Source of the DNA: Candidatus Iainarchaeum sp.
GTDB taxonomy: Archaea > B1Sed10-29 > WALL01
Reading direction: 5' to 3'
NCBI GenBank assembly: GCA_021162685.1
Contig: JAGGYF010000035.1
Coordinates: 1 to 37,363 of the forward strand
Length of the DNA: 37,363 nucleotides
The notes below the pieces were generated by a model. The model ran no database searches, was not told the DNA's origin, and saw nothing but the letters and a program-made list of their open reading frames with translations. Each line of letters starts with the position of its first letter. Position 1 is the stretch's first letter. The position numbers were made by a program, and so were the translations under genes. This document shows positions 14,401 to 31,263 of this stretch, one piece after another.

Positions 14401-14867
14401 ACGAGAGATTCTACGAATTTGGAGGTCAGGATGAGGTTGCTGAGTTAGAGAATGTAACTGCACTTGGAAGAAAGATTCCAGGTGTTAAGATATTCTATAA
14501 GAAGGATTATTATGAAATGAGCCCAGAGGAACTTGCGAAAGAAGATATAAAGCAGATGAAAAGTTATCTAGAATGGGGAAGGCGCATTATTAGCGAAGTC
14601 GATAATGACACTATTAAGAAGCTCGCAGAAATGGATCTCGGATCCTTTATAGGCATGGATGCAAGAGATATGTATAAACGTTTGAGGTTAGAATGCGAAA
14701 AGCGCGGGATTGATTTTAGAAAGATAGATGCATTTGACCCCTACTCAACAAGAGAACGCTTCTTTGAGTTGTGTTTGGCTGCAAAGGAGAAGATGGGGGA
14801 AGACGTGAGTAGGTATTTAGAAGAAGAAAAGGCAGTAGAAAAGGAAATTAATAAAAAAGAAGCCTGA
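2445..14867 (+). CDS. Giant coiled-coil protein (4,140 aa) with phosphothreonine-lyase-like and GGCT-like domains
   Basis: The start is TTG at 2445, with GGTGAG overlapping the previous stop as ribosome-binding site. Order: residues 1-~165, basic, with three degenerate GIDIERLK repeats; ~190-1550, long Glu/Lys-rich coiled coil; ~1550-3090, further helical segments; ~3095-3175, TPR-like hairpins; ~3305-3523, two GYEIE modules; ~3540-3670, a domain resembling OspF/SpvC/HopA1/LanKC lyases; ~3908-4030, a gamma-glutamylcyclotransferase/AIG2-like domain (FVYGTL, then KNERFY). In the lyase-like domain, K3566 and H3568 (YKLHIS), K3595 (YKFVK), R3606, Y3619 (ITIYT) and R3665 (FYRYG) match, in order, the catalytic and phosphate-binding residues known in SpvC (K104, H106, K136, R148, Y158, R213). 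There is no signal peptide or membrane segment. A zinc-ribbon sequence continues in the +1 frame past the stop. Domain calls are from motif memory, without a search. Confidence 0.85.
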   Translation: MPLFRKKRRPFIWLKPGERKAYKRVVDRRPFPIGMRKPYEQVRGLFEEARERVPEKRPEEKPKGIDIERLKRLTGQPPKEQERVRIDIGKLKEAAERPEEKPKGIDIERLKALAERPIEIEVPEERELTEREFIDTLRFYVEHGKPISGWLKAKIREGGYDLDRLMEAAGVPPEEKPAALPLPKPVPVKRITPSEELPEEKIREIRETELSKNTVYNIFEPYDMKVLYLNLILNKPKEMLQNSQFLRDEIRALAQNGELHEEKANKILSEFDTFKEQIIPIVEEHGKILVDAEKKQEKILSKVDEIETSVKEHERTISELEKRLGQTNPNEMKELGDGLVAAIGDMRKQKEELEALTRELKEKIKGDTVERETEEARRKLEEKITRLEGNYVLLEEAVDKHLDMLSESMEKQRMQLEQSASLLNEMVKKGTYSLEDVQKVSGVVKQLNETEREKEDKENYVKQYSDVIKSMRKGDKLSELETHLNGLSETIKNTSIQLEEAVNRIIESTKPPLTLARRTAEQIGNVLTGLEEDIKPERRVMLKTLEHSLGEYDTRIENAERAIEHLNELNKSFDVEDELKDAKKIIENLRDSRNKAEETLRNMKMTYERLDEKKKLLSPEDIQEIERGLNAPIDHVKPDVAIGAIEDYLNKKQREGIKTIERVVTDIRTKGVPEISVSIDELTKAVETLKKAGVPGDEVNEHLERVKGELLSRMQRDTEELKKQVDSRTMKIEEKISEIERDPSAIDEVIKMREEIEGFKDRIDEMVALQKAAEEKGVEVKVSLDEIKQSVEELPNEINQKIKEAVEKQIVLMTKQHEETVNKIDEEMQRLRLDLGVAKTSEDIAEINSRLNEIQTKYSEQLRKISETIEKLKTEPTEEAVGRTLEELNKKQEDIESSINALRAEVSETHSKLSEISDIVRRIESTLSDLPKYELQELPSKMDEINAQIKLLAEKGVSEEKINELRRNLISEMSRRFEEQTNRFASTEEKITRNIEEINETIKNLSERISEEGVSEQINKLVEARRALSEELQNLRRAVDILKEVSGKEIDLGGVDELVRQHEAIKDGISDLVKKQEELGRKIEENETNTEQAIQDAMDKLSSEHNTIISRLTDIDERLDENLTNIKSAVEREETLDTAMIENINKSAEQINRLRYELETVRKSIENIRAIGADTTELERKQNEILRRIDEYKERLEEKVTKGFEEIQDLVNQKINDVNANMDEKYEKFKNLILQLPSNPQLIDEIRGARDDIIKTRNELTTKLDVIQRTIDDLKRNPHFKPPDTSGIGERLRNIEDLIRNEADNVVSSVVEEHKKTREDLERRAEELDKKLEDAINRLKKPGITDEEREELVREIKKIAEDKDKVYKQLSELSEQLSNVSAGLSGLGAKVDALKDEHKKLSDELSQISRATTEITSMLSRLSTRVAEKEDIDVVVRRLEEQGEELTGLREMLETFIKQAEGGMREAYMEDILREDERWRKEVEELEKKEREYEETGKELDELKKAIEEWKREEVGRPPVSDEEIRKEVEKLEEHKKELEEMSKELETFTYGRVRSLVAEGYPEEATSELETLASQGRYNEFLDKYEELVRTAITAKGIIDRVIESVPEHLRGRAIDTITKPEAMATMAPVEIEDLVKKQVELFLRDELNKFYEKNNVSRDLQTYLDALVSAGTITPKDVLEQSDIYKRIVKDFEEVKRKRELPEEVVKAVGKERVEVPEEHIIPVTNVPKINEIKSDARQVLPNEVVDSVPDYEVNQMLDKENVPKRIQEQLKRIEEKVDKIEGLLREKKEELEKEYPDPARIAEINKAIEKAEEDIEKSKSTIVIGAFMAPEKKEEIKKALDDAKDIERRYKRLERVKSPYDLFGAEILETMPKTLSKEDVEEIVNPEGIEERIASLETQVRDLKDRIMERSKEPEKIDELIESIEEFKKALTKLALESKVIGRNEEQVKKIMDTINGLKSEIEDVKAITPSITSDQINKTAENLASGAITPEDAENRLNYFMDIIKKQGLVPESSEYRQLIDSVNRLREALEKTKLNNALKILEEPSIAEELLWVQSLSPDMEGAGEVFKRVHEALFIGDVERITQAVEEAKRIQPDLERSVKDATVVEDEISKEIESFIPTKASDEDIVRVRREMERTNEKIEELGLLSEKPVVKEMIDRLQTKISILNELIEEAERRKLGEVAKSKPIEEVPEEIQKKLNKLDKEWESVEEKVDALYDRLAEKVAELETKWQSIDNYYNNLITMLEEAIKKMPDAEDTLRNKIDELKKQREEFRETISNQAGSIISETAAPVDDVYEIDELITYNIEKGNEEEVKSLVDRLGKKQAEAYKKMEELTEKAEAKLSELSEKLKEHEAFRYMEEVLPVLTKDERDRFFEKAALQRGKYLVKEPEKTPFDSTPESIDSWLSHWRVYLSQKRLTEEELKEMVERRKQKVKEDVKRGVVRFEMKKKKEPVKRLVKSEPLFEGLYAKLKSFMNPEDFKALENRVNEKARSEPEKTTEIFESEVREELNIPEEKFIIDGVDEKAEEVKEKRKEELSKKEPARILQETIKDAEKVVETEGIDVTQEEMKTYLEMLPISILKGMEESRETAVDGLKRSIEKQGLPSEKAEEIVKIVETRIRDAKPAFDKQLGKDVTEEKKRIINKIPEALHETIKKRTGVENLLELDKDFLQERLDAIEFIQNTFLPRFPEAVKSLKEKVKVPLALVSLDVLKKEYEKAEKKREKENEEFLDRLSGWAQGLPPEVYLTPEKKPTIDEAMSIAKRALKKIGEEWKLSEDTYKAVEKGVSEFVGAHAGKYNTTKELYDAIMTHAEIIKSNYLWDWFEEFRAWAMKPIEKPVEVKKPEVKKGILSPEDEAFLQGILDWGKVVEKPLEATEFMVNTALTYYMSSPFKEATDKLLRQVGMYRNERMRRSLKEKVFKQLFERATQFEKAKRLFEGISRDKLIDATRYIETANRMVETAIKENRIGDAIDVLVDELKRFPEHRTEEERKAINDLLSKLSEKKTTNIKEKTEEWIERVDNAFIEAQGGEPELEPPPKEVIDYIKSKMEEGRDIEQAIDELEAETGISIPVREIIRATIEREAFEMPEEDIESLYGKLNTLSSLGMHEESAEVAKKIIDQSPGDFLIRRIRVEELYNAGKVNEAMKELEQYIKEAEERNPPSVSMLENLKRKIIKDTKEYKQMKRWIEDLRKTASIHDLGYNALMKLWEEGKLTRKDVEKTTKLYDLWRNIGMNEYVPPDDRTPLQNEIADVIEAIGRGEEVDDRIRNIKEEVEEVHRKQEEEAKEAEEFLEEILGEATAETLKEEAEELLQTNDLEQIANFFEKHGDEIEESAPEVYNKLENYYKTKLAIDALNEINRGENVDKNILLLTYRYEDFKDSLETLGRHDILDEMERVLKERGYEIEKPTAETLKEQVDRVLQTKDTEKIGFFLRVHGDEIKKIDKDLYDRLSRLQLNTKLAMGILDEINRGENVDENVKYLAEHYEGIKDSLETLGKHDILDEMKRVLKEHGYEIEKPTEAELIRVASIHDIAKEPEKYEFREDRKFIVRKKGTKAVQGYKLHISANEENYEEVFKTVAPIVEKYDIGYKFVKPEEFVNARETENIYGKFITIYTENPEQAAAIAKEVDEALAEKDIATGRKIKGDKPLPNGKSGLVFYRYGVYDMSMPGYVHPDGLKQYQESVRKSKEMGLIPLSLRSWLDFERRQGRNWIIPEEKDRNGVPTKAIPGFLEKDELEEMLTRKPVTLDREHIALAEKLGLDADKLNEEQKEALVYAQKALELAEENGGTEWKEDRLRLLTDYKDRVEKKAYELLLNELQMKADDWWVGKRQLSVESDAQSLIRAYLKDGKVPDVDEITKIIYRGRPKKWLEKKGMTQEKIREIVEERVKAEEKNLEDAEKREGVVKVFVYGTLERPGFLEEMGINIDNVSFVRAVVPGLKATYHGGLMNDKWANPVKADGEVLRGTILYMRPEDFEKMKKNERFYEFGGQDEVAELENVTALGRKIPGVKIFYKKDYYEMSPEELAKEDIKQMKSYLEWGRRIISEVDNDTIKKLAEMDLGSFIGMDARDMYKRLRLECEKRGIDFRKIDAFDPYSTRERFFELCLAAKEKMGEDVSRYLEEEKAVEKEINKKEA
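2619..2777 (+). repeat. Direct repeat at the 5' end of the giant gene
   Basis: An identical ~39-nt stretch occurs at 2619-2657 and 2739-2777, exactly 120 nt (40 codons) apart, encoding EEKPKGIDIERLK. A third, diverged copy (RVRIDIGKLK) lies between them. It is a short internal duplication in the basic N-terminal region. Confidence 0.85.
12357..12683 (+). repeat. GYEIE module, copy B
   Basis: 109 codons, from TAETLKEEAEELL to GYEIEKP. It is directly followed by copy C and closely similar to copy A at the window start (for example DLEQIANFF and NEINRGENVD in both). Predicted all-helical, of unknown function. Confidence 0.85.
12684..13013 (+). repeat. GYEIE module, copy C
   Basis: 110 codons, from TAETLKEQVDRVL to GYEIEKP. 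Its 3' third is nearly identical in DNA to copy A, more so than to adjacent copy B (LKEHGYEIE against LKERGYEIE), suggesting exchange between the two genes. It leads directly into the lyase-like domain. Confidence 0.85.
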
Positions 14868-20801: not shown

Positions 20802-21086
20802 CTATAATAGTCCTGTACTCATCATTCTACGCAGCGTTATTATGAAAATACCAATACTGATTATGAAGTAGAGTAGAGGGATAACCTCTTTAAACAATGG
20901 AAGTTTTTCAGATGAAAAGACTATGGCATCAATAATTGCCCAGACAGAAGATAATACATAGATCTGATAGGTAAACGCACTCACCAACTTTCTCCTATAA
21001 TGTTTTAGCCTCATAGATACTACTCCTAGGAATATGAACATTGCAATCAGGAAGAGAATAGTCCTGCCAAGGGCAAGTATATTCAT
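20802..21086 (-). CDS. Small membrane protein, three TM segments, 94 aa
   Basis: Three hydrophobic segments are visible (residues ~5-25, ~37-58, ~68-86) with short basic connections and no soluble domain. It overlaps the stop of the upstream 3-TM gene in ATGA and is the last gene of the operon 7TM sensor - KaiC-like ATPase - 3-TM - 3-TM. Size and spacing suggest it could work as one half of a split 6-7 TM unit with its neighbour, resembling the 7TM input regions of archaeal histidine kinases. I recognise no named family. Confidence 0.75.
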   Translation of the reverse strand: MNILALGRTILFLIAMFIFLGVVSMRLKHYRRKLVSAFTYQIYVLSSVWAIIDAIVFSSEKLPLFKEVIPLLYFIISIGIFIITLRRMMSTGLL

Positions 21087-21349
21087 ATGTATCCCTCCAC
21101 CTTGCTATAGTAGATTCCCATGATGATAAGCAAAAAGGCAATCATTGTTTCTGATGTTTGGACAGCGGCATCCCATTCAAAAAATGTAAAGAAGTGGAAT
21201 AGCATCATCCAGAAAACAATCAATGTGAGAAGAGAAGATAGGTACATATACCTCTTTTTTGGCACTCTTCTCACTTTGGATGTAAGATATAGCATGAGTA
21301 CAAATGTTGCAAACATTAATGAGCCATTAACCACCCATATTGTCTCCAT
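21083..21349 (-). CDS. Small membrane protein, three TM segments, 88 aa
   Basis: The chosen ATG at 21349 has GGTGGT three bases upstream, just after the stop of the KaiC-like gene; a longer frame from 21421 would overlap that gene. Three hydrophobic segments (WVVNGSLMFATFVLMLYL; YLSSLLTLIVFWMMLFHFF; TSETMIAFLLIIMGIYY) fill nearly the whole protein. It is followed by a second 3-TM protein of similar size with a 4-base overlap, suggesting a paired membrane unit. No family recognised. Confidence 0.75.
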   Translation of the reverse strand: METIWVVNGSLMFATFVLMLYLTSKVRRVPKKRYMYLSSLLTLIVFWMMLFHFFTFFEWDAAVQTSETMIAFLLIIMGIYYSKVEGYI

Positions 21350-21357
21350 ACTACCAC

Positions 21358-22059
21358 CTATGCAAAGAACTCCTCTACTTTGACCTCCAATCCTTTCTCT
21401 GTAAGAGAAAAGTTGATCCACTTGAGTGGGTGTCTTGTATCAAGCATCCTCACTACCCTAAGCCTTCTTTGCCCATCTTTTAATACCATTTCAATTGTAC
21501 CGTCGCATACGTAATCAAGTGTAGAAACAACCCTTTCATTGTGTAAACCTTCTTCTAACACAACCATTGCGATAGAATTGTTTGTTTTGATTGTTCCACT
21601 AAATACTTGGAGGAATTTGAACACGCTCTTTTCATCCCCATACATAAGGAAATCTGATATAGAGTCTATGATTACCCGTGATGGAAGTTTTGTCTTTTTT
21701 AATCCCTCTTTTACAAGTTCGTTCAACTCATTTAGCTCAAGAAGGGAGTGTAACCTTGCAACTCCTTCTTCGTTTTTCAGTTCTCTTCTGGGAGTCCTCC
21801 AGGAATAGCAATCTATGAAAAACACATTTTTCAATATCTCTTTGTTTCCACCACAATAGTCTACTAACACCTTTTTTATATGCGAAACAGGCTCTCCCGT
21901 AACGATGTAGATGGCAAATTCCCTGTTTTCTAAGCCTTTACATATGAATTGCTTACAGAATGTTGTTTTTCCAGAACCTGGTGGGCCTCTTAAAAGCAGT
22001 ACTGCTTTTGATGGAAACCCTCCTCCTAATAATTTGTCAATTCCGGGCACTCCTGACAC
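21358..22059 (-). CDS. KaiC/RadA-superfamily ATPase (KaiC-like, single domain)
   Basis: A RecA-fold ATPase of 233 aa. The N-terminus has the family's GVPGIDKLLGGGFP lead-in, followed by Walker A GPPGSGKT (residues ~25-32) and Walker B SRVIIDSISDFL. The usual EE dyad after Walker A is reduced to GE (IVTGEPVSH), so ATP hydrolysis may be weak or altered. The GTG at 22059 is the only standard start near the family's N-terminus, but the strong AAAGGAGGGA motif lies about 20 bases further upstream, so an unusual start a few codons earlier is possible. It follows a 7TM sensor and precedes two 3-TM proteins, suggesting a membrane-linked signalling role. Confidence 0.85.
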   Translation of the reverse strand: MSGVPGIDKLLGGGFPSKAVLLLRGPPGSGKTTFCKQFICKGLENREFAIYIVTGEPVSHIKKVLVDYCGGNKEILKNVFFIDCYSWRTPRRELKNEEGVARLHSLLELNELNELVKEGLKKTKLPSRVIIDSISDFLMYGDEKSVFKFLQVFSGTIKTNNSIAMVVLEEGLHNERVVSTLDYVCDGTIEMVLKDGQRRLRVVRMLDTRHPLKWINFSLTEKGLEVKVEEFFA

Positions 22060-22076
22060 ACGTCGCTTGTTTATCT

Positions 22077-22742
22077 TTATCCCTCCTTTAAACTAAATGC
22101 ATACATAAAAAACATACCCATTAATGTGGATGCAATGCCAGTTAAAGGTGTTGAGGCAATTCCTAGCAATGGGAGGAAGGCAGTTATTGTAATGATGCTA
22201 ACAAACAATGCAACACCGGAAAAGATTAGTAGTATTCTCTGCTTGTTTATCTTTTTCACAAGGGATGACTCTAGCTTATATATGAGATAGAGAGAGTAAG
22301 CATTTACTAGTATAACATATTCCAAATAAATCCATATCAATGGACCAAATTCCATCACATATCCATACGCGATGTGCTTTATGGATACAACCATTGTTTT
22401 AGTGAACAGGACAAAAACAGAGAGCAACCCAGGTATTGCGTAAAAGCTTATGGGCAGTTCCCTATCAAAAAAACGTTCAACAAAGTGTAGTAGAAACATT
22501 GCGGAGAACGCGGCAAATACATATGCGCTCCTAACCAGGAGTAATGCATAAGGAGGATGGGAAATCCTAAGAATCATCTCAGATGCATTCCATGCAACAA
22601 CGCACGCAAGTGCAAAAATAAATGGCGGATGATATCGCGTTTTCTTTATTTTGGGTATGAGATAAAGAAGAAGGCCCAGGTTCACAAAAAATCCAATCAT
22701 TGAGAAGATTGCAAGGAATCGCATGATTGATTTTAGGGACAT
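22077..22742 (-). CDS. Stand-alone 7TM sensor protein (histidine-kinase N-terminal 7TM-like)
   Basis: About seven hydrophobic helices span almost the whole 221 aa, with no kinase, HAMP or GGDEF domain attached. The pattern resembles the 7TM input region found at the N-terminus of archaeal histidine kinases. I chose the ATG at 22742: the frame opens at 22787, but that ATG lies inside the TATA palindrome (22771-22782) and the one at 22763 is too close to it. At 22742 the expected transcript start (~22751) leaves a short leader with AAGGAG. It is the first gene of the operon with the KaiC-like ATPase and diverges from the PAS-kinase operon. Confidence 0.75.
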   Translation of the reverse strand: MSLKSIMRFLAIFSMIGFFVNLGLLLYLIPKIKKTRYHPPFIFALACVVAWNASEMILRISHPPYALLLVRSAYVFAAFSAMFLLHFVERFFDRELPISFYAIPGLLSVFVLFTKTMVVSIKHIAYGYVMEFGPLIWIYLEYVILVNAYSLYLIYKLESSLVKKINKQRILLIFSGVALFVSIITITAFLPLLGIASTPLTGIASTLMGMFFMYAFSLKEG

Positions 22743-22770
22743 CTCCTTATAAACCTTTTCCATGCAAAAG

Positions 22771-22782
22771 TATATTAATATA
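22771..22782. promoter_or_regulatory. Palindromic TATA box shared by divergent signalling operons
   Basis: TATATTAATATA is a perfect 12-bp palindrome. Its centre is ~25 bases from the ATG at 22802 on the plus strand (leaderless start) and ~34 bases from the chosen ATG at 22742 on the minus strand. One symmetrical element could therefore place TBP for both operons, coupling or competing their expression. Confidence 0.6.
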
Positions 22783-22801
22783 GTCATTACTAGAAAAGAG
22801 T

Positions 22802-24505
22802 ATGAACGCTTCTCTTACTGCAATGTTTAAAGCGCATAGGAAAACGATGGGGAAACAGTTGGAAGAAACACTTGTTTTGTTGCTAAGAAAATATAAGAAG
22901 AAGATAGCAAGGGAGTGGGCAACTAGACTCAAAGAAATTGCAGAAAGTAGAGGACAAAGACTCTCGTTCCCAAAGCACAAGCAGAGATTTGAAAAGGTCG
23001 TTGAGTATATAACAGAAGAAATAGAGACAGGGGAGACAGAACAACTCAAGCGCTTTTTTCTAACCATCGCGAAGAGAAGTCCAAGTTTTGGGTTTTCAAT
23101 TGAGGAGGTACATATCGGATTTTCTGTGTTAAAGGAGGTAATGTATGAGATTATTGAGGAGAATACCTCAAAGCCAGAGCAGGTAAAATTGCGTAGATTA
23201 TTCAGACGTGTTGTTGATGGAGATACTATACTACTGGCAAAGGCATTTCTGGGTGTAAGAGAAGAAGAGTTGAGGACATCAGAAGAGAAGTATAGGTTTT
23301 TAGTTGAAAATTCAACAGATACAATATTTACTATAGGTTTAGATGCAAAATTCTCTTTTATCAATAAGCATGGAATAAGAACCAGTGGGTTTAGTGAGGA
23401 TGAACTTGTTGGCAAACCATTTACAAAGATTATACCGAAAAAGGATAGAAAAAAAGCAATGGGGATATTCAGACAGGTTATGCAGGGAAAAACCATACGG
23501 AATGTTGAATTGCCTGTTTTGCACAAAAATGGCGAAGTTGTAATTATGGAATTTAGAGCAAAACCAATCTACAAGGAAGGAAAGAGTATTGGGGGCATAG
23601 GTGTTGGGAGGGATATAACAGAACGTAAGAAGATGGAAAAACAACTAAGAGAAACAACAGAGCGATTGAAGAAGATATTGATGGATTCTACAGTATCAAT
23701 AATTATTGTAGATAAAAAAGGTCACATAGAGATATTCAACAAAGGTGCGCAGAAACTTACAGGATATTCCCAAACTGATGTTGTTGGTAAGCCAGTAGAT
23801 ATCTTGTTCTCTGGCGAAGATAAAAAGGTAATAGTAGAATTGTTAAAAACCAAAGCTAGGGCAAAGGGGATTGAGGCAGTATTCAGAAAAAAGAACGGGA
23901 AAACAGTTCCTGTTGCACTTTCTATATCCAACCTATACGGAAATCAGAAAAATCCTTCTGGGGCAATAATCATTGCCATAGATGTTTCAAAGATAGAGCG
24001 AATAAAACAAGAATTAGTTAGAGAGAGGGACTTTGCTAAAAAGATTATAGAAACTTCTCCTTCTCTCATCGTTGTTCTGGATAAACGTGGGAGGATATTG
24101 CTTCTGAATAAATGGGCTGAGAAGATATTGAAATGTGACAGAGAGAAGTATATTGGAAAAAGTTGGTTTACGCATTTCCTCAGGAAAGAGGATATTATAC
24201 CCCTGAAAAAATACTTCAAGGAACTTTTGAAAGGCAATGTCAAACACAGACACAGAAGTAGGGTAGTAACAACAGATGGAAAGACCCGTACAATTGAATG
24301 GGACAATGCAATCATATATGACGAAAAAGGCGACATAGAAATGATTATCAGCATAGGCAGAGACATCACAGAACAGTTGCGCTTAGAGGAAGAATTAAAG
24401 AAAAGGTTAAAAGAGCTTGAAACATTTAAGAAATTTGCTGTTGGCAGGGAGTTGAGAATAATTGAACTAAAAAACAGGATAAAGCAGTTAGAGGCAATAA
24501 GATGA
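22802..24505 (+). CDS. Multi-PAS sensor protein with RsbR-type N-terminus, 567 aa
   Basis: Residues ~15-150 form a helical region resembling the N-terminal sensor of RsbR/RsbRD proteins (KKKIAREWATRLKEIA ... GFSIEEVHIGFSVLKEVMYEII). Three PAS domains follow, at ~160-275, ~288-400 and ~410-525, the first and last ending in the typical GRDITE motif. No kinase, HAMP or output domain is attached and no membrane segment is seen. A C-terminal coiled coil ends at the stop, which overlaps the ATG of the histidine kinase (ATGA). It therefore looks like the detached sensory half of a split PAS-kinase. What it senses cannot be read from the sequence. Confidence 0.9.
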   Translation: MNASLTAMFKAHRKTMGKQLEETLVLLLRKYKKKIAREWATRLKEIAESRGQRLSFPKHKQRFEKVVEYITEEIETGETEQLKRFFLTIAKRSPSFGFSIEEVHIGFSVLKEVMYEIIEENTSKPEQVKLRRLFRRVVDGDTILLAKAFLGVREEELRTSEEKYRFLVENSTDTIFTIGLDAKFSFINKHGIRTSGFSEDELVGKPFTKIIPKKDRKKAMGIFRQVMQGKTIRNVELPVLHKNGEVVIMEFRAKPIYKEGKSIGGIGVGRDITERKKMEKQLRETTERLKKILMDSTVSIIIVDKKGHIEIFNKGAQKLTGYSQTDVVGKPVDILFSGEDKKVIVELLKTKARAKGIEAVFRKKNGKTVPVALSISNLYGNQKNPSGAIIIAIDVSKIERIKQELVRERDFAKKIIETSPSLIVVLDKRGRILLLNKWAEKILKCDREKYIGKSWFTHFLRKEDIIPLKKYFKELLKGNVKHRHRSRVVTTDGKTRTIEWDNAIIYDEKGDIEMIISIGRDITEQLRLEEELKKRLKELETFKKFAVGRELRIIELKNRIKQLEAIR

Positions 24506-25422
24506 TGGACAAGATTGTTGTGATATCTGAACCAATAAGTGTCATCTTCCTATTCATCATCATGCTCGCTGCTTTGGCAATAGTTATCATAGAGCAATGG
24601 AAACAGAGTACTGACAGGAAGATAAAGGAGAGGACAATACAATTGCGTGGATTACTTAAAGAAAGGGAGAAAGAGAAAAAGGAATTAGAAAACATGCATG
24701 CTGCATTATTGAATATGATGGAAGACTTGAATGAATCATATGAGGAATTAAGGAGAACAGACGTTTTGAAATCAAGGTTTATAAGGGATATGTCACATGA
24801 ATTGAAGACCCCAGTTGCAGTAATCTCTGGTAATATCCAACTTCTTAGGGATAAGAGGATATACACAAATAGAAAACGCTTGGAAGAAGTATTGGATATG
24901 CTTGATAGAAACATAAAACGGCTTGAAGGAACAATTGATGAGCTTTTGAACATATCTCGTTTAGAATCACTTGATTTTGTTTTTAAGAAGGTGAACATAT
25001 CAAAGATAATAAAAGAAAAGGTAAAAGAGTATGAACCAATAGCCAAGGCGAAAAATCTAAAGTTAGTTTATAAGGTTGAACCACTACCAAAAATTATGGC
25101 CGATGCTGAAAGAATAGGGTATGCGATAGGTAACATTATAAGTAATGCTATAAAATTTACAGATAAAGGATATGTCAAAATAGAGGCGAGGAAAAAGGGG
25201 AACGAAATAATCTTTAAGGTGAAAGATACAGGGAGGGGGATACCAAAGAAAGATACTGATAAGGTTTTCCGCAAGTTCTATAAGGTTTATCCAGAGATCC
25301 CTGGGACAGGCATTGGGCTTTCAGTGACAAAGGAGATTGTAGAGGCGCATGGAGGGCGCATATGGTTCAAAAGCAAGGAAGGAAAGGGAAGCACTTTTAT
25401 ATTTGCTATACCCATAAAGTAA
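24502..25422 (+). CDS. Membrane-anchored histidine kinase, 306 aa
   Basis: One N-terminal membrane segment (residues ~8-31) is followed by a coiled coil, the dimerisation/phosphoacceptor domain with His99 in DMSHELKTP, and the ATPase domain: N box NIISNAIKF (N215), G1 DTGRGIP (242-248), F box FRKFYK, G2 GTGIGL (268-273). All motifs for autophosphorylation are intact. It has no sensory domain of its own. The upstream gene supplies PAS domains and overlaps it by 4 nt, so the pair probably acts as a split sensor kinase. The response regulator follows 10 nt downstream. Confidence 0.95.
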   Translation: MMDKIVVISEPISVIFLFIIMLAALAIVIIEQWKQSTDRKIKERTIQLRGLLKEREKEKKELENMHAALLNMMEDLNESYEELRRTDVLKSRFIRDMSHELKTPVAVISGNIQLLRDKRIYTNRKRLEEVLDMLDRNIKRLEGTIDELLNISRLESLDFVFKKVNISKIIKEKVKEYEPIAKAKNLKLVYKVEPLPKIMADAERIGYAIGNIISNAIKFTDKGYVKIEARKKGNEIIFKVKDTGRGIPKKDTDKVFRKFYKVYPEIPGTGIGLSVTKEIVEAHGGRIWFKSKEGKGSTFIFAIPIK

Positions 25423-25432
25423 TGGTGGTGAT

Positions 25433-25807
25433 ATGGGCAACATATTGATAGTGGAAGATGAGCCTGATATGGCAAGAACTATTCAAATTATGTTGGAGAG
25501 TGAAGGTTATTCAACAGAAATAGCAGAGAATGTAGACAAAGCAATGAACATACTCAAAACAAAAGGTGCGGACCTTGTTCTGTTAGATATTATTCTGCCA
25601 CAAGTGCATGGAGATGTTTTACTCAAAAAGATGCAGAAGTCAGAGAAACTAAAGAAAGTACCAGTGATTGTTGTTACAGTTGTTGACCCTGTAACAGGCA
25701 TTAAAGAGGATATGAAAGAGATAAAAAAAGATGTAGGTTTCATATCCAAACCATTCAAAAAAGAACATCTTTTGAGGGAAGTAAAACAAAGATTAAAGGA
25801 CAACTAA
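25433..25807 (+). CDS. Single-domain response regulator (CheY-like receiver), 124 aa
   Basis: A receiver domain without an output domain. The acidic pair is E8/D9, the phosphoacceptor D52 (LLDIILP), with T82 and K106 (SKPF) completing the active site. The ATG at 25433 follows GGTGGTGAT. It is the probable partner of the upstream kinase. Lacking a DNA-binding domain, it must act by protein contact, as single-domain receivers commonly do in Archaea. Confidence 0.95.
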   Translation: MGNILIVEDEPDMARTIQIMLESEGYSTEIAENVDKAMNILKTKGADLVLLDIILPQVHGDVLLKKMQKSEKLKKVPVIVVTVVDPVTGIKEDMKEIKKDVGFISKPFKKEHLLREVKQRLKDN

Positions 25808-25837
25808 GAGCAGAGGTAGTGTAATATATAGACTAAC

Positions 25838-26629
25838 TTACTTAGGAAATACCTTCATCAAGAATTCACAGTATGTGTCACCCAAGCCCCAGCATTTTGT
25901 TTCTTTTACAGCCACATTTTCAAGTTCTAGAAATTGGCAAAACGCGCCCCTAATCAATCCTCTTGTTATGTGACAAACTGGTTTATTCACTAAAGGTATG
26001 CCTGAGGCAACTGCACATTCATCAACTCTAAACGTGTACATCTTCATATTGCTCTCTTTTTCATCCTTCTTTGTTTTGTAGGTAACGATCCCTATCTTCT
26101 GTTCTTTGAAATATTTCACAATTGCATCTGCTAACTCATCTGTGTTCTTTGGTTTATATATTCTGACAAGTCTTCTTCCGATATTCTCACCTGCTTGGAC
26201 ACTATTACGTTCTGCTTGAAACTCTGGCATTATGTCATGGGCAGAATATATAAGTTCTTTTAGCAAATCAGCTGCAACCTCATTTTTTAGTTTCACTCGC
26301 GTTCCTTCAGGCGTTTCATATGTGAAGTCCATCTGATGCCCGTTTTTGAATACTTCCTCAACATCAAACTTGTACCCCTGTTTTTTTATTTCCTCTAAGA
26401 GTTCAACAATCTTGACACCACTCACAATTAGCACTTCTTTCAATTCATTTATTGTTTTTCCAGGGACAAACGCCCTTATCTCTCCGTTTAGGAAAACCTG
26501 TATCCTTAAGTTCCCTATGCTTTTCTCAAATAATTCAAGACCATCTACTTTCTTTAGCCCGCTGATTTTTGAGAGCTTCTTTGGGTCTAAATGCATCCCG
26601 ATGTGATATACATACGCCTGTGCTTGCAT
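25838..26629 (-). CDS. V4R (4-vinyl reductase) domain sensor protein, 263 aa
   Basis: The C-terminal third carries the V4R signature: DECAVASGIP, then CHITRGLIRGAFCQFLE, then CWGLGDTYCEFLM, with Cys residues typical of this small-molecule or metal-binding domain. The N-terminal half has no family I can name. The start at 26629 follows GTGGTT and lies 9 nt after the stop of the KaiC-like gene, so the two are cotranscribed. V4R domains occur in sensory proteins beside KaiC-like ATPases and kinases; a ligand-sensing role is likely, the ligand unknown. It converges on the response regulator gene. Confidence 0.88.
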   Translation of the reverse strand: MQAQAYVYHIGMHLDPKKLSKISGLKKVDGLELFEKSIGNLRIQVFLNGEIRAFVPGKTINELKEVLIVSGVKIVELLEEIKKQGYKFDVEEVFKNGHQMDFTYETPEGTRVKLKNEVAADLLKELIYSAHDIMPEFQAERNSVQAGENIGRRLVRIYKPKNTDELADAIVKYFKEQKIGIVTYKTKKDEKESNMKMYTFRVDECAVASGIPLVNKPVCHITRGLIRGAFCQFLELENVAVKETKCWGLGDTYCEFLMKVFPK

Positions 26630-26638
26630 ATAACCACT

Positions 26639-27331
26639 TTATATAATCTCCTCTTGGTAGACAACAATACCCTTCGGTGTTATTTTGAATGGATAGATAT
26701 TGTTGCTATGGGCAACTCCCCTCATCTTCACTATCTCTAATGCTCTTCTACGTTCGTTTCTTACAGGTATGTTATACAAAACAATGACACCATCAACAAC
26801 GAACTCCTCTAGCGTGTATGTGGATGCCTCCCTCGTGAGGCTTTGACTTTCAGATGTTAGGAGGACTGTACAATCAAGGTTCTCCAAAAATCCGAGAAGG
26901 CCGATTAGCTTTCTTCTGAACTCAAATGTGTCACGTGTATTAAGTCGCAGTATAGTTAATGGGTCAATAACAACCCTCCTGACTTTATGTCTTGTAACAT
27001 ATGATTGTAACATATCTGTTAGTGTATCCCAATCAAATTTGTCCACAGTAGTTATCACAATATTTCCTTCTCTCAAATGTTTTTCTAAGTCCCAATTGAA
27101 TCCTTGACTCAGGTTCTCAACAAGTTTTTCTGATTTTTCTTCTAATGAGATAAACAATCCTTTATCACCAAACTTTTCAGCACCATTATACAAAAACTGC
27201 ATAGCGAATGTTGTCTTTCCAGAACCCGGCCCACCAGTGACCAAGACGTGCCTCTTTTTTAGGAGTCCACCACCAAGCATCTCATCCAATCCCTTAATTC
27301 CTGTTGGCACCCTTGGTATCTTCTCTTTCAT
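26639..27331 (-). CDS. KaiC-like ATPase, complete motifs, 230 aa
   Basis: A RecA-fold ATPase of the archaeal KaiC-like group: RVPTGIKGLDEMLGGGL at the N-terminus, Walker A GGPGSGKT, the catalytic EE dyad (FISLEEKSE) and Walker B RRVVIDPLTIL. Unlike the KaiC-like protein encoded at 21358-22059, all catalytic features are present. The start at 27331 has GGTGGT five bases upstream. It is followed by the V4R gene. Circadian function should not be assumed; these proteins are generally ATP-dependent regulators in Archaea. Confidence 0.92.
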   Translation of the reverse strand: MKEKIPRVPTGIKGLDEMLGGGLLKKRHVLVTGGPGSGKTTFAMQFLYNGAEKFGDKGLFISLEEKSEKLVENLSQGFNWDLEKHLREGNIVITTVDKFDWDTLTDMLQSYVTRHKVRRVVIDPLTILRLNTRDTFEFRRKLIGLLGFLENLDCTVLLTSESQSLTREASTYTLEEFVVDGVIVLYNIPVRNERRRALEIVKMRGVAHSNNIYPFKITPKGIVVYQEEII

Positions 27332-27395: not shown

Positions 27396-28262
27396 ATGGA
27401 AAAACTGGAGTATTATCTGGGTCCGCCGTTTAAACTTTTCGGGACTAGCGTATCCTTTGATGATGCAGATATCGTGGCTTATGGCATCCCTTTAGATTCA
27501 ACAACAACATTCAAGAAGGGATGTTCAAGAGGACCAAATGCGATTAGAGAGGCATCACTAGAAATTGAGACATTTATTTCAGATAGGAGTATAGATGTTT
27601 TGGATGTGAACTCAATCTGTGATATTGGAGATATATGGATCCCAAAAGGAGATGTTACACAGGCGTTGGACACCATTACAAAAGTGACATCTATCATCTT
27701 GAATGCAGGCAAACTTCCTATAGCGTTAGGAGGCGAACATCTAATCTCACTTGGGTGCGTTCGGGCTTTTGATGATATTTCTTTAGTTGTGTTTGATGCA
27801 CATGCTGATCTAAGAGATGAGTATATGGGCGATAAGTACTCTCATGCAACATGGTTGTACCATGCAATGTCAGTTATAAAACCAGAGAATATTCTAGTTG
27901 TGGGTGTTAGATCATTGAGTAAAGAAGAACATAAATTGGCTGAAGAAAAGGATATCACCATGTTGTTCATGCACGATATACTAAACGATATGGATGATAC
28001 ATTAGCACTTCTACGTGAAAAAACATCGGGAAAGCGCGTTTATCTAAGTTTTGATGTGGATGCATACGATACATCATATGTTCCTGCAACAGGCACACCA
28101 GAACCTGGGGGCTTGACAATCCACCAAGCAGCCGAATTCCTAAGAAACATCAACGGAGAGATTGTTGGAGTAGATATAACAGAAACAGCAAGGGATCCAG
28201 AGATGATTACACCAACAACTGCAGCGAAGACTATTGTTGAGATATTAGGTTTGTTTGCATGA
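27396..28262 (+). CDS. speB: Ureohydrolase, probable agmatinase
   Basis: Arginase/agmatinase family enzyme of 288 aa with a full binuclear Mn site: H115 (GGEH), D134, H136 and D138 (DAHAD), D220 and D222 (SFDVDAYD). Agmatinase, which cleaves agmatine to putrescine and urea, is the usual activity of archaeal members of this length; related ureohydrolase or formimidoylglutamase activity cannot be excluded. The frame is open upstream, but the ATG at 27396 matches the family N-terminus and lies ~26 bases from a TATA box, so I take a leaderless start. The 3' end overlaps the convergent PAS gene by 18 nt. Confidence 0.9.
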   Translation: MEKLEYYLGPPFKLFGTSVSFDDADIVAYGIPLDSTTTFKKGCSRGPNAIREASLEIETFISDRSIDVLDVNSICDIGDIWIPKGDVTQALDTITKVTSIILNAGKLPIALGGEHLISLGCVRAFDDISLVVFDAHADLRDEYMGDKYSHATWLYHAMSVIKPENILVVGVRSLSKEEHKLAEEKDITMLFMHDILNDMDDTLALLREKTSGKRVYLSFDVDAYDTSYVPATGTPEPGGLTIHQAAEFLRNINGEIVGVDITETARDPEMITPTTAAKTIVEILGLFA

Positions 28263-28592
28263 GATAATTTTGAGTATCCCATACGGCGTGTTATTATAAT
28301 ATTTCACAAATGCATTCGCCTTTATCCTTACCTTTTTTCTTGATTTTGTGTATCTTGTCCCTTCTACAATCTTTGGTTTTTCTGATGTGACAATGTCATA
28401 AAACAGTTTTCTTTGCGTTTCTATTTCTTCCGGTGGTGAGCCATCAAAAAAACTTCTTCCTTTCACTTCATCTAAACTATACCCAAGAATGTTTAGTATC
28501 CTATCCGAAACATACAACTCTTCTGTTGTGTACATATCAATGATAACATCCACATCCGGATTATCCCTTAAAATCTTCTTAACTGCATCCAT
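28245..28592 (-). CDS. Stand-alone PAS domain protein, 115 aa
   Basis: One PAS domain fills the protein: the helical lead-in DAVKKILRDNPDVDVIID, then LYVSDRILNILGYSLDEVKGRSFFD, then a C-terminal beta sheet with SRKKVRIKANAFVKYY. The ATG at 28592 has a GTGA motif about six bases upstream; a GTG at 28601 would add three residues and overlap the previous stop. It follows the ribbon-helix-helix-like gene closely and is probably cotranscribed, which suggests a sensor-regulator pair. It has no output domain. Confidence 0.8.
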   Translation of the reverse strand: MDAVKKILRDNPDVDVIIDMYTTEELYVSDRILNILGYSLDEVKGRSFFDGSPPEEIETQRKLFYDIVTSEKPKIVEGTRYTKSRKKVRIKANAFVKYYNNTPYGILKIISCKQT

Positions 28593-28597
28593 ACTAG

Positions 28598-29086
28598 TCA
28601 CTTATTTTGCAATCTTTTCATTATTTCATCAATCTTCCCCTCTTCCTCAACCTTTTTCATAAGCATTAGAGCAAACATATGTGATTCATCAACGCCATAC
28701 TGTTTAGCATACTGGCTCAAGACAGACATTACGTTTTCTGGAAGTCTCACTTTAACATCCTCAATCTCTTGCTCTGCGCGAATCTTTTCAACATGTGCTT
28801 TTATCTCTTCCTCTGTGAGGTCTGGCTCAGAAGCCAGAGAAGCATGCAACTCAACTAGATTTAAAGACAATTCCCTTCCCTTACGCGCGGCTTCTCTGTC
28901 CAGGATATCCTGCGCCCTTTCTATTGTTTCTTTGTCTTTGGGTGATACTGTCCTTGGGGCAACATACCTTACAAAATCAAGAATTGCTCGCCTATAAAAC
29001 TCGCTTGTGCGCGAATATCTTTTCTGTATAACCTCATCAGCCATGCGCTTTGTTTCTTTTGGTACTTTAAATATCCTTTCAATCAT
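28598..29086 (-). CDS. Ribbon-helix-helix-like DNA-binding protein, 162 aa
   Basis: The N-terminus (MIERIFKVPKETKRMADEVIQKRYSRTSEFYRRAI, in two overlapping parts) has the short beta strand plus two helices of MetJ/Arc-type repressors. A second strand-like stretch (VKVRLPENVMSVLSQYAKQYG) with a following helix lies near the C-terminus. The frame opens at a GTG at 29095, but GTGAT lies just before the ATG at 29086, which I take as start. It begins within 15 nt of the RNase P RNA 3' end on the same strand, so RNase P RNA, this gene and the PAS gene may share a transcript. The DNA-binding role is inferred from the fold pattern. Confidence 0.75.
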   Translation of the reverse strand: MIERIFKVPKETKRMADEVIQKRYSRTSEFYRRAILDFVRYVAPRTVSPKDKETIERAQDILDREAARKGRELSLNLVELHASLASEPDLTEEEIKAHVEKIRAEQEIEDVKVRLPENVMSVLSQYAKQYGVDESHMFALMLMKKVEEEGKIDEIMKRLQNK

Positions 29087-29096
29087 AAAAATCACT

Positions 29097-30328: not shown

Positions 30329-31230
30329 TTATGACAATAATTTACCCAACCTTCGCAGCTGCTTTCCTTTTGTTGGATGTCTTGAAGGAATCAGTTGAAC
30401 AAACTTTTTCAACGAATTCCTTGCACATATAGCCAGATAATAATTTATTCTTTCACCAGAGTCCTTGTTTACTTTCCCAGAGTTGATTCCCATGTTTTCA
30501 AGCATTTCTTTGATATGCTTGAGCCCTTTGGGTTGTTTTGAGAAAACCTGATCTGAGGGTCTTCCTCCCTCACCAAACAGGTCCCTTCTGCATCCCAAAA
30601 ACCTGCAATGAAATGCTTTTGTATCTCTTCAGAAGCCTTCAAAACGCATTTTGGTGTTTCCCAGCTTGCCTGCGATTTAACAGGCATTTCCAATACTTTG
30701 TGGATATATTCTCCAACTAACTCGCTGTACAGCGTGAGAGTGGTTTGCTTGATAACTGGTCTCACACCAAACTGGTTCAGATAGATTGGCACGAGCGTTT
30801 CACGGAGCCAAGGTTGTTCGCTTTGCTCCATGCCCAGTCCAATGACGTTTCCATCGACTTGGATAAGCCAGCCATCTCTCAACGCACCTGCGAGATAAGC
30901 CAAATCCTTGTTGATTTGCATTGGAAAATGCACTGTCTTGGCTTTGTTGGTAACCATTTTCAAAGAGATTCTTTCAAACTCATCTACCAAACTGAGGTAG
31001 ATTTTTACTGGCAGGTTTCTCCTTCCACTCAAGTATTGATATGAAGTCCACTTGTTTACTCCAAAGTGTTTTTGAAGGTAAGTGGCTCCGCCTCTGTCTT
31101 TGAGTGTTTTTTGAATTACTTTGAACTCTTTCGAATTCAAAACAACTCTTGTCTTGACTGCCTTTTCTCCAAGAATCTCCATCAAATCAACACCACATAT
31201 CTGTTTTGTTTGTTGTGGTGTGATTTTCAT
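30329..31230 (-). CDS. LAGLIDADG homing endonuclease, with -1 frameshift
   Basis: Encoded inside the 23S intron. From the ATG at 31230 (GGTGAT five bases upstream) it has two LAGLIDADG motifs, LAGALRDG (residues 113-120) and FIAGFWDAEG (207-216), both with the acidic catalytic residue, so the monomeric two-motif type. The frame stops at 30469 after a non-homologous tail. Family-like sequence (LKHIKEMLENMGI ... YYLAICARNSLKKFV ... SRHPTKGKQL) continues in the -1 frame to the TAA at 30329, abutting the intron's terminal stem. The switch coincides with C CCA AAG (30526-30532), a heptamer of the X XXY YYZ type. Joined length is ~300 aa, normal for the family. It would cut intronless 23S genes to spread the intron. 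Either decayed by a 1-nt deletion or read by frameshifting. Confidence 0.85.
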
Positions 31231-31263
31231 TTTAATCACCGCTCCTACTCTTGGGAAAAGCAA

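What the first reader, a model, noticed from the sequence alone, without database searches (positions are those of the whole stretch)
20802..27331. Signalling island with two KaiC-like ATPases, split sensors and a split kinase
A stand-alone 7TM sensor, two 3-TM proteins, a PAS sensor without kinase, a kinase without sensor, a receiver without output and a V4R protein cluster with two KaiC-like ATPases. One ATPase has the catalytic EE pair and the other only GE, hinting at an active/inactive pair. Every classical sensor-kinase module is here as a separate protein, and no DNA-binding output is present.
Basis: partly seen in the sequence, partly recalled or inferred. Interest (0 to 1): 0.6.

Follow-up and report, generated by a model that had tools for sequence, protein, structure and literature searches.

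The report
KaiC–V4R signalling hub with TBP-like fold
A tiny archaeon keeps its only detected two-component signalling system beside a conserved pair of genes, a KaiC-type ATPase and a sensor whose front half is predicted to fold like the TATA-binding protein, hinting at an unusual route from sensing to gene control.

Summary
The island is real. The genome belongs with Ca. Diapherotrites (DPANN archaea). All nine proteins are there with the stated domains. The neighbourhood is conserved: a related genus carries KaiC1-V4R-7TM-KaiC2-PAS-kinase-receiver-KaiC3 in a row, and KaiC1-V4R is a fixed gene pair in 8 of 8 class genomes that have the V4R protein. In those genomes all 6 HisKA kinases and all 6 receivers lie within 6 kb of a V4R gene; elsewhere in the class two-component genes occur only on bacterial-looking contigs. 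So the island holds this genome's only detected two-component system.

KaiC2 has lost the first catalytic Glu and the arginine-finger position but keeps both Walker motifs; its clade tends to sit beside multi-TM proteins. The V4R protein's C-terminal half models as a MopR/Bet3-type sensor with an invariant Cys-Glu-Cys-Cys set, and its first ~100 residues model, with high confidence, as one TATA-binding-protein repeat. Sequence homology to TBP is not shown and most DNA-contact residues are missing.

Best reading: a variant of the proposed archaeal KaiC signalling hub, fed by a membrane module and a two-component system, with the TBP-fold V4R protein as candidate output.

The parts
26639..27331 (-). 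KaiC1: single-domain KaiC-family ATPase, 230 aa, catalytic pair E64-E65, Walker A K39-T40, Walker B D123, K202/R204 trans fingers present
   Evidence: Pfam PF06745 224.3 bits; alignment A2; residue table; 67-70% identity to orthologues of four family members
25838..26629 (-). V4R protein, 263 aa, 9 bases behind KaiC1; residues 1-104 predicted TBP-fold repeat, residues ~115-263 MopR/PoxR/Bet3-like V4R sensor with invariant C219, E243, C246, C254
   Evidence: Pfam V4R 57.6 bits; AF2 models and fold searches; conservation 9 of 9 rows
26318..26629 (-). TBP-like N-terminal domain of the V4R protein (residues 1-104)
   Evidence: AF2 pLDDT 91.1, pTM 0.82; Foldseek's first 40 rows are TBP structures or initiation complexes; Z 10.4 to 1ais_A, first non-TBP row 7.0
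25433..25807 (+). REC-only response regulator, 124 aa, phospho-acceptor D52 with T82 and K106 (counted from the sequence)
   Evidence: Pfam Response_reg 76.6 bits; 45% identity to the REC of G004:C9; only REC match in the genome
24502..25422 (+). Histidine kinase, 306 aa: one TM helix (12-30), HisKA with H99, HATPase_c
   Evidence: Pfam HisKA 59.9, HATPase_c 94.5 bits; 40% identity to the kinase of G004:C9; only HisKA match in the genome
22802..24505 (+). Soluble sensor, 567 aa: weak RsbRD_N-like region (27-119, under cut-off), three PAS domains, C-terminal coiled coil; stop overlaps the kinase start (ATGA)
   Evidence: Pfam; 38% identity over 166 aa to the PAS protein of G004:C9, same C-terminal coil
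22077..22787 (-). Stand-alone 7TM sensor (HisKA_7TM family without kinase); true start probably inside the listed ORF
   Evidence: Pfam PF16927 38.8 bits, cut-off 28.6; 7 TM; relative upstream of KaiC2 in G004:C9 (22% over 116 aa)
21358..22059 (-). KaiC2: degenerate KaiC-family ATPase; Walker A and B kept, first catalytic Glu replaced by Gly, second Glu kept, Lys finger replaced by Arg, Arg finger replaced by Leu
   Evidence: Pfam PF06745 99.5 bits; residue table; alignment to solved KaiC
21083..21349 (-). 3-TM protein a (88 aa)
   Evidence: 3 TM; no significant Pfam match; only itself found in the ORFs of 29 regions
20802..21086 (-). 3-TM protein b (94 aa), overlaps 3-TM a by 4 bases
   Evidence: 3 TM; no significant Pfam match; only itself found in the ORFs of 29 regions

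Best explanation
A KaiC-centred signalling hub of Diapherotrites built from three joined modules. (a) KaiC1-V4R core: an intact KaiC-family ATPase and a two-domain protein, made together. (b) Two-component input: the soluble PAS protein and the membrane-anchored kinase act as one split sensor kinase that phosphorylates the REC-only receiver; the receiver acts by binding the V4R protein (or KaiC1), as a split version of methanogen REC-MetOD1 regulators. (c) Membrane input: the 7TM and 3-TM proteins signal to KaiC2, a nucleotide-binding but probably poorly hydrolysing KaiC, which works as a switch like ArlH and may contact the KaiC1 ring. The V4R half senses a small ligand or a redox/metal state; the TBP-fold domain is the output, by contact with promoter DNA, with the transcription machinery, or with another protein. 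Shown: gene content, conservation, linkage, residue patterns, predicted folds. Inferred: who binds whom, phosphotransfer, ligand, and the output.
For: KaiC1-V4R adjacent, same strand and order in 8 of 8 class genomes with a strong V4R match. G004:C9 has KaiC1-V4R-7TM-KaiC2-PAS-HK-REC-KaiC3 and G002:C13 KaiC1-V4R-KaiC2-HK-REC-KaiC3, each in a row on one strand. Two-component genes: 6 of 6 HisKA and 6 of 6 REC genes of those eight genomes lie within 6 kb of a V4R gene; 6 of 8 V4R genomes have HK or REC, against 0 of 9 without (two genomes with bacterial-like contigs left out), Fisher p 0.002; p 0.024 with those two kept. PAS and kinase fused in G001. Two of nine V4R rows also match MetOD1, a published REC output domain. 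KaiC2 residue losses; KaiC2 clade beside a gene of 3 or more TM in 9 of 21 against 4 of 41 other KaiC ORFs, p 0.006. TBP fold and MopR/Bet3 fold.
Against: KaiC1-V4R occurs without any detected HK or REC in 2 of 8 genomes (G011, G013), and G003 has a REC but no detected HisKA, so the two-component part is not essential to the core. The 7TM protein was found in 2 of 41 genomes only and the 3-TM proteins nowhere else among the ORFs looked at. The window genes lie in three transcription units on two strands, so co-regulation is not shown here. Profile comparison gives no sequence support for TBP homology (probability 4.7%; no Pfam TBP hit), and TBP's DNA-contact Asn and one of the two Phe are missing (roles recalled). 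No experiment exists.
Confidence: 0.5

Rival explanations
1. The hub's output is protein-level control of a surface appendage: KaiC1/KaiC2 and the V4R protein regulate a type IV pilus or archaellum-type ATPase, as ArlH does with ArlI; the TBP-fold domain is only a protein-binding module.
For: In G002 the cluster is divergent from an operon with T2SSE and T2SSF genes about 9 kb away; G004 has pilin-like ORFs on the same contig (the signal-peptide motif is recognised from memory); in the Euryarchaeota MAG J060 (L096) a full-length V4R relative starts 9 bases behind a T2SSE ATPase; a KaiC gene of the window genome lies 3 kb from a T2SSE gene on C44. ArlH binds but does not hydrolyse ATP and regulates ArlI (PMC8978795 passages).
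Against: No T2SSE match on the KaiC1-V4R contig in 6 of 8 genomes, the window's contig C5 included, and one 37 to 40 kb off in G004. The two near cases inside the class are one genus.
Confidence: 0.25
2. A loose collection: KaiC1-V4R is one functional pair, the PAS-HK-REC set another, and 7TM-KaiC2-3TM-3TM a third, sharing a neighbourhood without acting in one pathway.
For: Three transcription units on two strands in the window; G011 and G013 keep KaiC1-V4R without HK or REC; REC 6 kb away from V4R in G003.
Against: Single-strand rows with the same gene set in G004 and G002; exclusive linkage of HK and REC to V4R across genomes.
Confidence: 0.2
3. KaiC1 works as a clock-like timer or phospho-oscillator in the sense of cyanobacterial KaiC.
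For: KaiC1 matches solved KaiC strongly, with catalytic and finger residues kept.
Against: Single RecA-like domain, no second domain to carry the autokinase sites; no KaiA or KaiB among the island proteins (no dedicated search was run). The family is very broad in archaea.
Confidence: 0.05

Closest known systems
Archaeal KaiC-like ATPases as signal transduction hubs (Makarova, Galperin, Koonin 2017, cited in PMC5847659; the paper itself not seen)
   Same: KaiC-family ATPases, intact and inactivated (iKaiC), linked to REC, PAS and membrane sensors
   Different: Here the linkage is a conserved multi-gene neighbourhood in one DPANN class, with a fixed V4R partner of predicted TBP-V4R build, and it holds the genome's only detected two-component genes
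REC-MetOD1 response regulators of methanogens (PMC5847659, passages seen)
   Same: A REC output through a V4R-like domain with conserved Cys; two of nine V4R rows match MetOD1
   Different: REC and V4R are separate genes here; the V4R protein has an extra TBP-fold domain and a KaiC partner
MopR/PoxR/DmpR phenol sensors
   Same: Predicted fold of residues ~117-263, Z 13.7 over 140 residues; Cys-Glu-Cys-Cys set in like spacing (MopR residues recalled)
   Different: Those sensors control a fused AAA+ sigma-54 activator (recalled); here the ATPase is a separate KaiC and the fused domain is TBP-like
ArlH (FlaH), KaiC-like switch of the archaellum motor (PMC8978795, passages seen)
   Same: KaiC-like protein that binds ATP without hydrolysis; a model for KaiC2
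   Different: KaiC2 is not in an arl operon; profile match to the ArlH structures is weak (6e-9 and 3e-10)
TATA-binding protein and other TBP-fold domains (RNase HIII, DNA glycosylases)
   Same: Predicted fold of V4R residues 1-104
   Different: Single repeat fused to a V4R sensor; no detectable sequence homology; most DNA-contact positions not kept

Membership tests
KaiC-family ATPase (PF06745), KaiC1 | KaiC domain over the curated cut-off with Walker A/B, catalytic Glu pair and Lys/Arg fingers | tested here: met
   224.3 bits, cut-off 26.6; residues K39 T40 E64 E65 D123 K202 R204
KaiC-family ATPase (PF06745), KaiC2 | Full catalytic set | tested here: not met
   First Glu is Gly, Arg-finger position is Leu; Walker A K-T and Walker B D kept. 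Domain membership itself is met, 99.5 bits
KaiC-family ATPase | ATP hydrolysis or autokinase activity | not testable with these tools
   Needs enzyme assays
Two-component system | HisKA with phospho-His, HATPase_c, REC with phospho-Asp | tested here: met
   Pfam scores; H99, D52, T82, K106 read from the sequences aligned
Two-component system | Phosphotransfer from this kinase to this receiver | not testable with these tools
   Adjacent genes, only detected pair in the genome
HisKA_7TM sensors (PF16927) | 7TM domain over cut-off | tested here: met
   38.8 bits, cut-off 28.6
HisKA_7TM sensors (PF16927) | Fused kinase or output domain | tested here: not met
   236 aa, TM only
V4R / MopR-type sensor | V4R domain and MopR-like fold | tested here: met
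   57.6 bits; Z 13.7, rmsd 3.3, 140 residues to 5kbi, on a predicted model
V4R / MopR-type sensor | Cys-Glu-Cys-Cys metal-type set conserved | tested here: met
   C219, E243, C246, C254 in 9 of 9 rows; equivalence to MopR zinc ligands is recalled, not tested
V4R / MopR-type sensor | Ligand or metal binding | not testable with these tools
   Needs purified protein
TATA-binding protein | TBP fold | tested here: met
   Predicted model only: pLDDT 91.1; Foldseek's first 40 rows TBP structures or initiation complexes, best E 6e-4; Z 10.4 versus 7.0 for the first non-TBP row
TATA-binding protein | Detectable sequence homology | tested here: not met
   hhalign probability 4.7%, P 0.0085; no TBP in the Pfam scan of 9 rows; no TBP in the PDB sequence search
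TATA-binding protein | Two repeats forming a saddle | tested here: not met
   One repeat only; a dimer could supply two, untested
TATA-binding protein | DNA-contact residues (roles recalled) | tested here: not met
   Of the positions mapped, Phe at F46 kept in 8 of 9 rows; Asn and the other Phe absent
ArlH (FlaH) | Gene next to ArlI/ArlJ-type genes | tested here: not met
   No T2SSE match on contig C5

The most novel reading that the evidence does not exclude
The V4R protein is a signal-gated alternative half-TBP. Most genomes of this class appear to encode TBPs of one repeat instead of two, so a saddle must form by dimerisation. The V4R protein's TBP-fold domain would dimerise, or pair with a half-TBP, when its sensor half binds ligand or the phosphorylated receiver, with KaiC1 assembling or releasing it. 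The island would thus be an archaeal analogue of a regulated sigma factor, and KaiC proteins would be tied to TBP: a KaiC2-like gene lies 32 bases behind a half-TBP gene on contig C20 of the window genome, and in G011 KaiC1-V4R is divergent from a TBP gene.
Probability: 0.15. Interest if true: 0.92.

Novelty: new variant of a known kind. Interest (0 to 1): 0.6.

Why it matters
Archaeal KaiC hubs have been proposed from genome context, mostly with unknown inputs and outputs. Here a reduced DPANN genome offers a very small case: one kinase, one receiver, a fixed KaiC1-V4R pair and a membrane-linked degenerate KaiC, small enough to rebuild in vitro. If the TBP-fold domain acts on transcription, it would give a direct path from a KaiC/two-component system to promoters in organisms whose receivers lack DNA-binding domains.

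Tried and rejected
Clock reading: rejected as unlikely, since KaiC1 is a single domain. Frameshift reading of the split PAS/kinase: rejected, because G004 has the same split with the same C-terminal coil and TM start. 3-TM proteins as halves or relatives of the 7TM protein: BLASTP of 3-TM a against 7TM gave nothing convincing (E 41), 3-TM a against b nothing, both against the 3-TM protein beside the C20 KaiC nothing convincing. Sequence proof of TBP homology failed. A PDB sequence search with the V4R profile found nothing at E 0.01, so the MopR and Bet3 likeness rests on the model. Pilus linkage as a general rule was not upheld. The TM counter overcounts short proteins; one search gives better counts for the proteins named. 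One neighbour (L048, 128 aa) looks like a spurious ORF and is not among the 9. The KaiC2 clade was marked by eye on a FastTree tree, the 41 other ORFs include fragments and RadA-like proteins, and related genes are not independent, so p 0.006 is only indicative. Two genomes, G014 and G015, carry HK/REC genes off any V4R; I left them out of one Fisher test after seeing bacterial-looking gene content or GC-rich short contigs (GC 0.49-0.54 against 0.39 for an archaeal stretch of G014, and 0.72 for G015:C10); counted as they stand the test gives p 0.024. G003 is 85% complete, so a missing kinase there may be an assembly gap. Not searched genome-wide: the PAS and 3-TM proteins, KaiA/KaiB.
Full report
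What the window is. The window is contig C5 of a 1.11-Mb, 45-contig genome with archaeal rRNAs and RNase P. Contigs of its family members match by length named MAG contigs titled Candidatus Diapherotrites or DPANN group archaeon, so I place it there; the window's own record was not named.

The observation. All nine proteins are present. They form three units: 7TM-KaiC2-3TM-3TM on the minus strand (22787 to 20802), PAS-kinase-receiver on the plus strand (22802 to 25807), and KaiC1-V4R on the minus strand (27331 to 25838). The flanks are an alanyl-tRNA-synthetase-like gene (by eye) and an arginase-family gene.

Conserved neighbourhood. A V4R profile found strong matches in 8 of 19 class genomes (a ninth, G014, has a weak match, and G012 a second weak one). 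In all 8 the V4R gene directly follows a KaiC1 orthologue (49-70% identity to KaiC1 of the window) on the same strand. G004:C9 holds KaiC1-V4R-7TM-KaiC2-PAS-HK-REC-KaiC3 in a row; G002:C13 KaiC1-V4R-KaiC2-HK-REC-KaiC3; G012:C17 KaiC1-V4R-REC-HK with KaiC2 divergent; G001:C34 KaiC1-V4R followed by a fused 3-PAS-kinase of 610 aa; G003:C23 KaiC1-V4R-KaiC3 with a REC 6 kb off; G013:C23 KaiC1-V4R with KaiC2 about 2 kb away; G011:C3 KaiC1-V4R alone. A second V4R gene of G002 lies 11 bases from a REC gene.

The only detected two-component system. HisKA matches: one in the window genome, and 6 in total in 5 of the 8 V4R genomes; REC matches: one in the window genome, and 6 in 5 of the 8. A HATPase_c search adds no second kinase candidate in the window genome: its other match is on C11 in a 541-aa frame, which I take for topoisomerase VI B (identity not tested). 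All 12 HK/REC genes lie within 6 kb of a V4R gene, 10 of 12 within 2.3 kb. In the 11 genomes without a strong V4R match, HK/REC genes occur in G014 and G015 only, on bacterial-looking or very GC-rich contigs. Association of having HK or REC with having KaiC1-V4R: 6 of 8 against 0 of 9, p 0.002, G014 and G015 left out; p 0.024 with them kept.

KaiC2. On a tree of 54 KaiC proteins KaiC2 falls in a clade of degenerate members. It keeps Walker A and B and the second Glu, has lost the first Glu, and where KaiC1 has K202 and R204 it has Arg and Leu. Genes of this clade stand beside a same-strand gene of 3 or more TM helices in 9 of 21 cases against 4 of 41 for the other KaiC ORFs, several overlapping by 4 bases. 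So a membrane protein plus degenerate KaiC is a repeated module in this class. ArlH, which binds but does not hydrolyse ATP (PMC8978795, passages), is a precedent for such a switch.

The V4R protein. The AF2 model (pLDDT 79.9) matches MopR, PoxR, DmpR and Bet3 structures over residues ~115-263 (Z up to 13.7). C219, E243, C246 and C254 are invariant in 9 of 9 rows; PMC5847659 notes the shared Cys of MetOD1 and the PoxR/MopR sensors (passages), and two of nine rows match MetOD1. Residues 3-101 matched TBP in the same search (1ais_A Z 10.6, 88 residues, rmsd 2.6). Predicted alone, residues 1-104 gave pLDDT 91.1, pTM 0.82; Foldseek's first 40 rows are TBP structures or initiation complexes, two of them (3eik) titled only 'double stranded DNA binding protein'; VIA gave Z 10.4 to P. 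woesei TBP, with the first non-TBP row at 7.0. Against this: no sequence homology by profile, one repeat only, and most DNA-contact positions not kept. A fold does not show a function. A full-length relative exists in a Euryarchaeota MAG, directly behind a T2SSE ATPase (L096).

TBPs of the class. A PF00352 search found matches in 17 of 19 genomes (16 over the cut-off). In the window genome both strong matches lie in open frames of 95 and 100 aa, that is, single repeats; two-repeat frames were seen in G012, G011 and G002. The second half-TBP gene of the window genome is followed after 32 bases by a KaiC2-like gene and then a 3-TM gene.

Mechanism and standing. The most likely reading is one hub: membrane module to KaiC2, split kinase to REC to V4R/KaiC1, with the V4R protein's TBP-fold domain or an appendage ATPase as the way out. 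Gene linkage is shown and folds are predicted; every interaction is inferred. KaiC hubs, REC-only receivers and iKaiC domains are known (PMC5847659). I found no report of a V4R protein with a TBP-like domain, of KaiC with TBP, or of this island in DPANN in full-text searches for 'TBP-domain'+'V4R', 'KaiC'+'V4R'+'archaea', 'KaiC'+'TBP'+'archaea'+'TATA', 'Diapherotrites'+'KaiC' and 'KaiC'+'histidine kinase'+'DPANN'+'response regulator'; that library lacks most subscription papers and the key 2017 mBio paper.

Noticed in passing
G000:C14 (L136:1492-1761) and G000:C20 (L151:1486-1758); class-wide list: TBPs in this class are mostly single-repeat (about 90 aa) proteins; the window genome has two half-TBPs and no two-repeat TBP was detected. 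G011:C8 has four TBP repeats within one open frame.
   Followed up: partly
L032:5751-7217: Half-TBP gene, KaiC2-like gene and 3-TM gene in a row on the same strand in the window genome.
   Followed up: partly
window 28245-29095: A stand-alone PAS protein (118 aa) overlapping by 4 bases with a 165-aa protein that looks ribbon-helix-helix-like by eye (Pfam matches below cut-off), just beyond the island; a possible DNA-binding neighbour.
   Followed up: partly
window 2445-14867: A 4140-aa, highly charged, coiled-coil-like ORF, preceded by a protein with a C-terminal TM stretch and a PTEEE-repeat protein; near its C-terminus a YGTL stretch resembles gamma-glutamylcyclotransferase-like proteins (by eye).
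   Followed up: no
window 30329-31263: LAGLIDADG-like ORF (weak Pfam match) at the end of the 23S rRNA gene, with a second overlapping frame; possibly a decayed homing endonuclease.
   Followed up: no
window 22059-22083: KaiC2 homology appears to begin a few codons upstream of its GTG start, where only ATA codons stand in frame behind a GGAGG; an unusual start codon is possible.
   Followed up: no
L030 (G000:C44:1-20000): Several KaiC paralogues flank a T2SSE/T2SSF operon with pilin-like ORFs; gene order resembles parts of G004:C9, as if the window island had been split off an ancestral larger cluster.
   Followed up: partly
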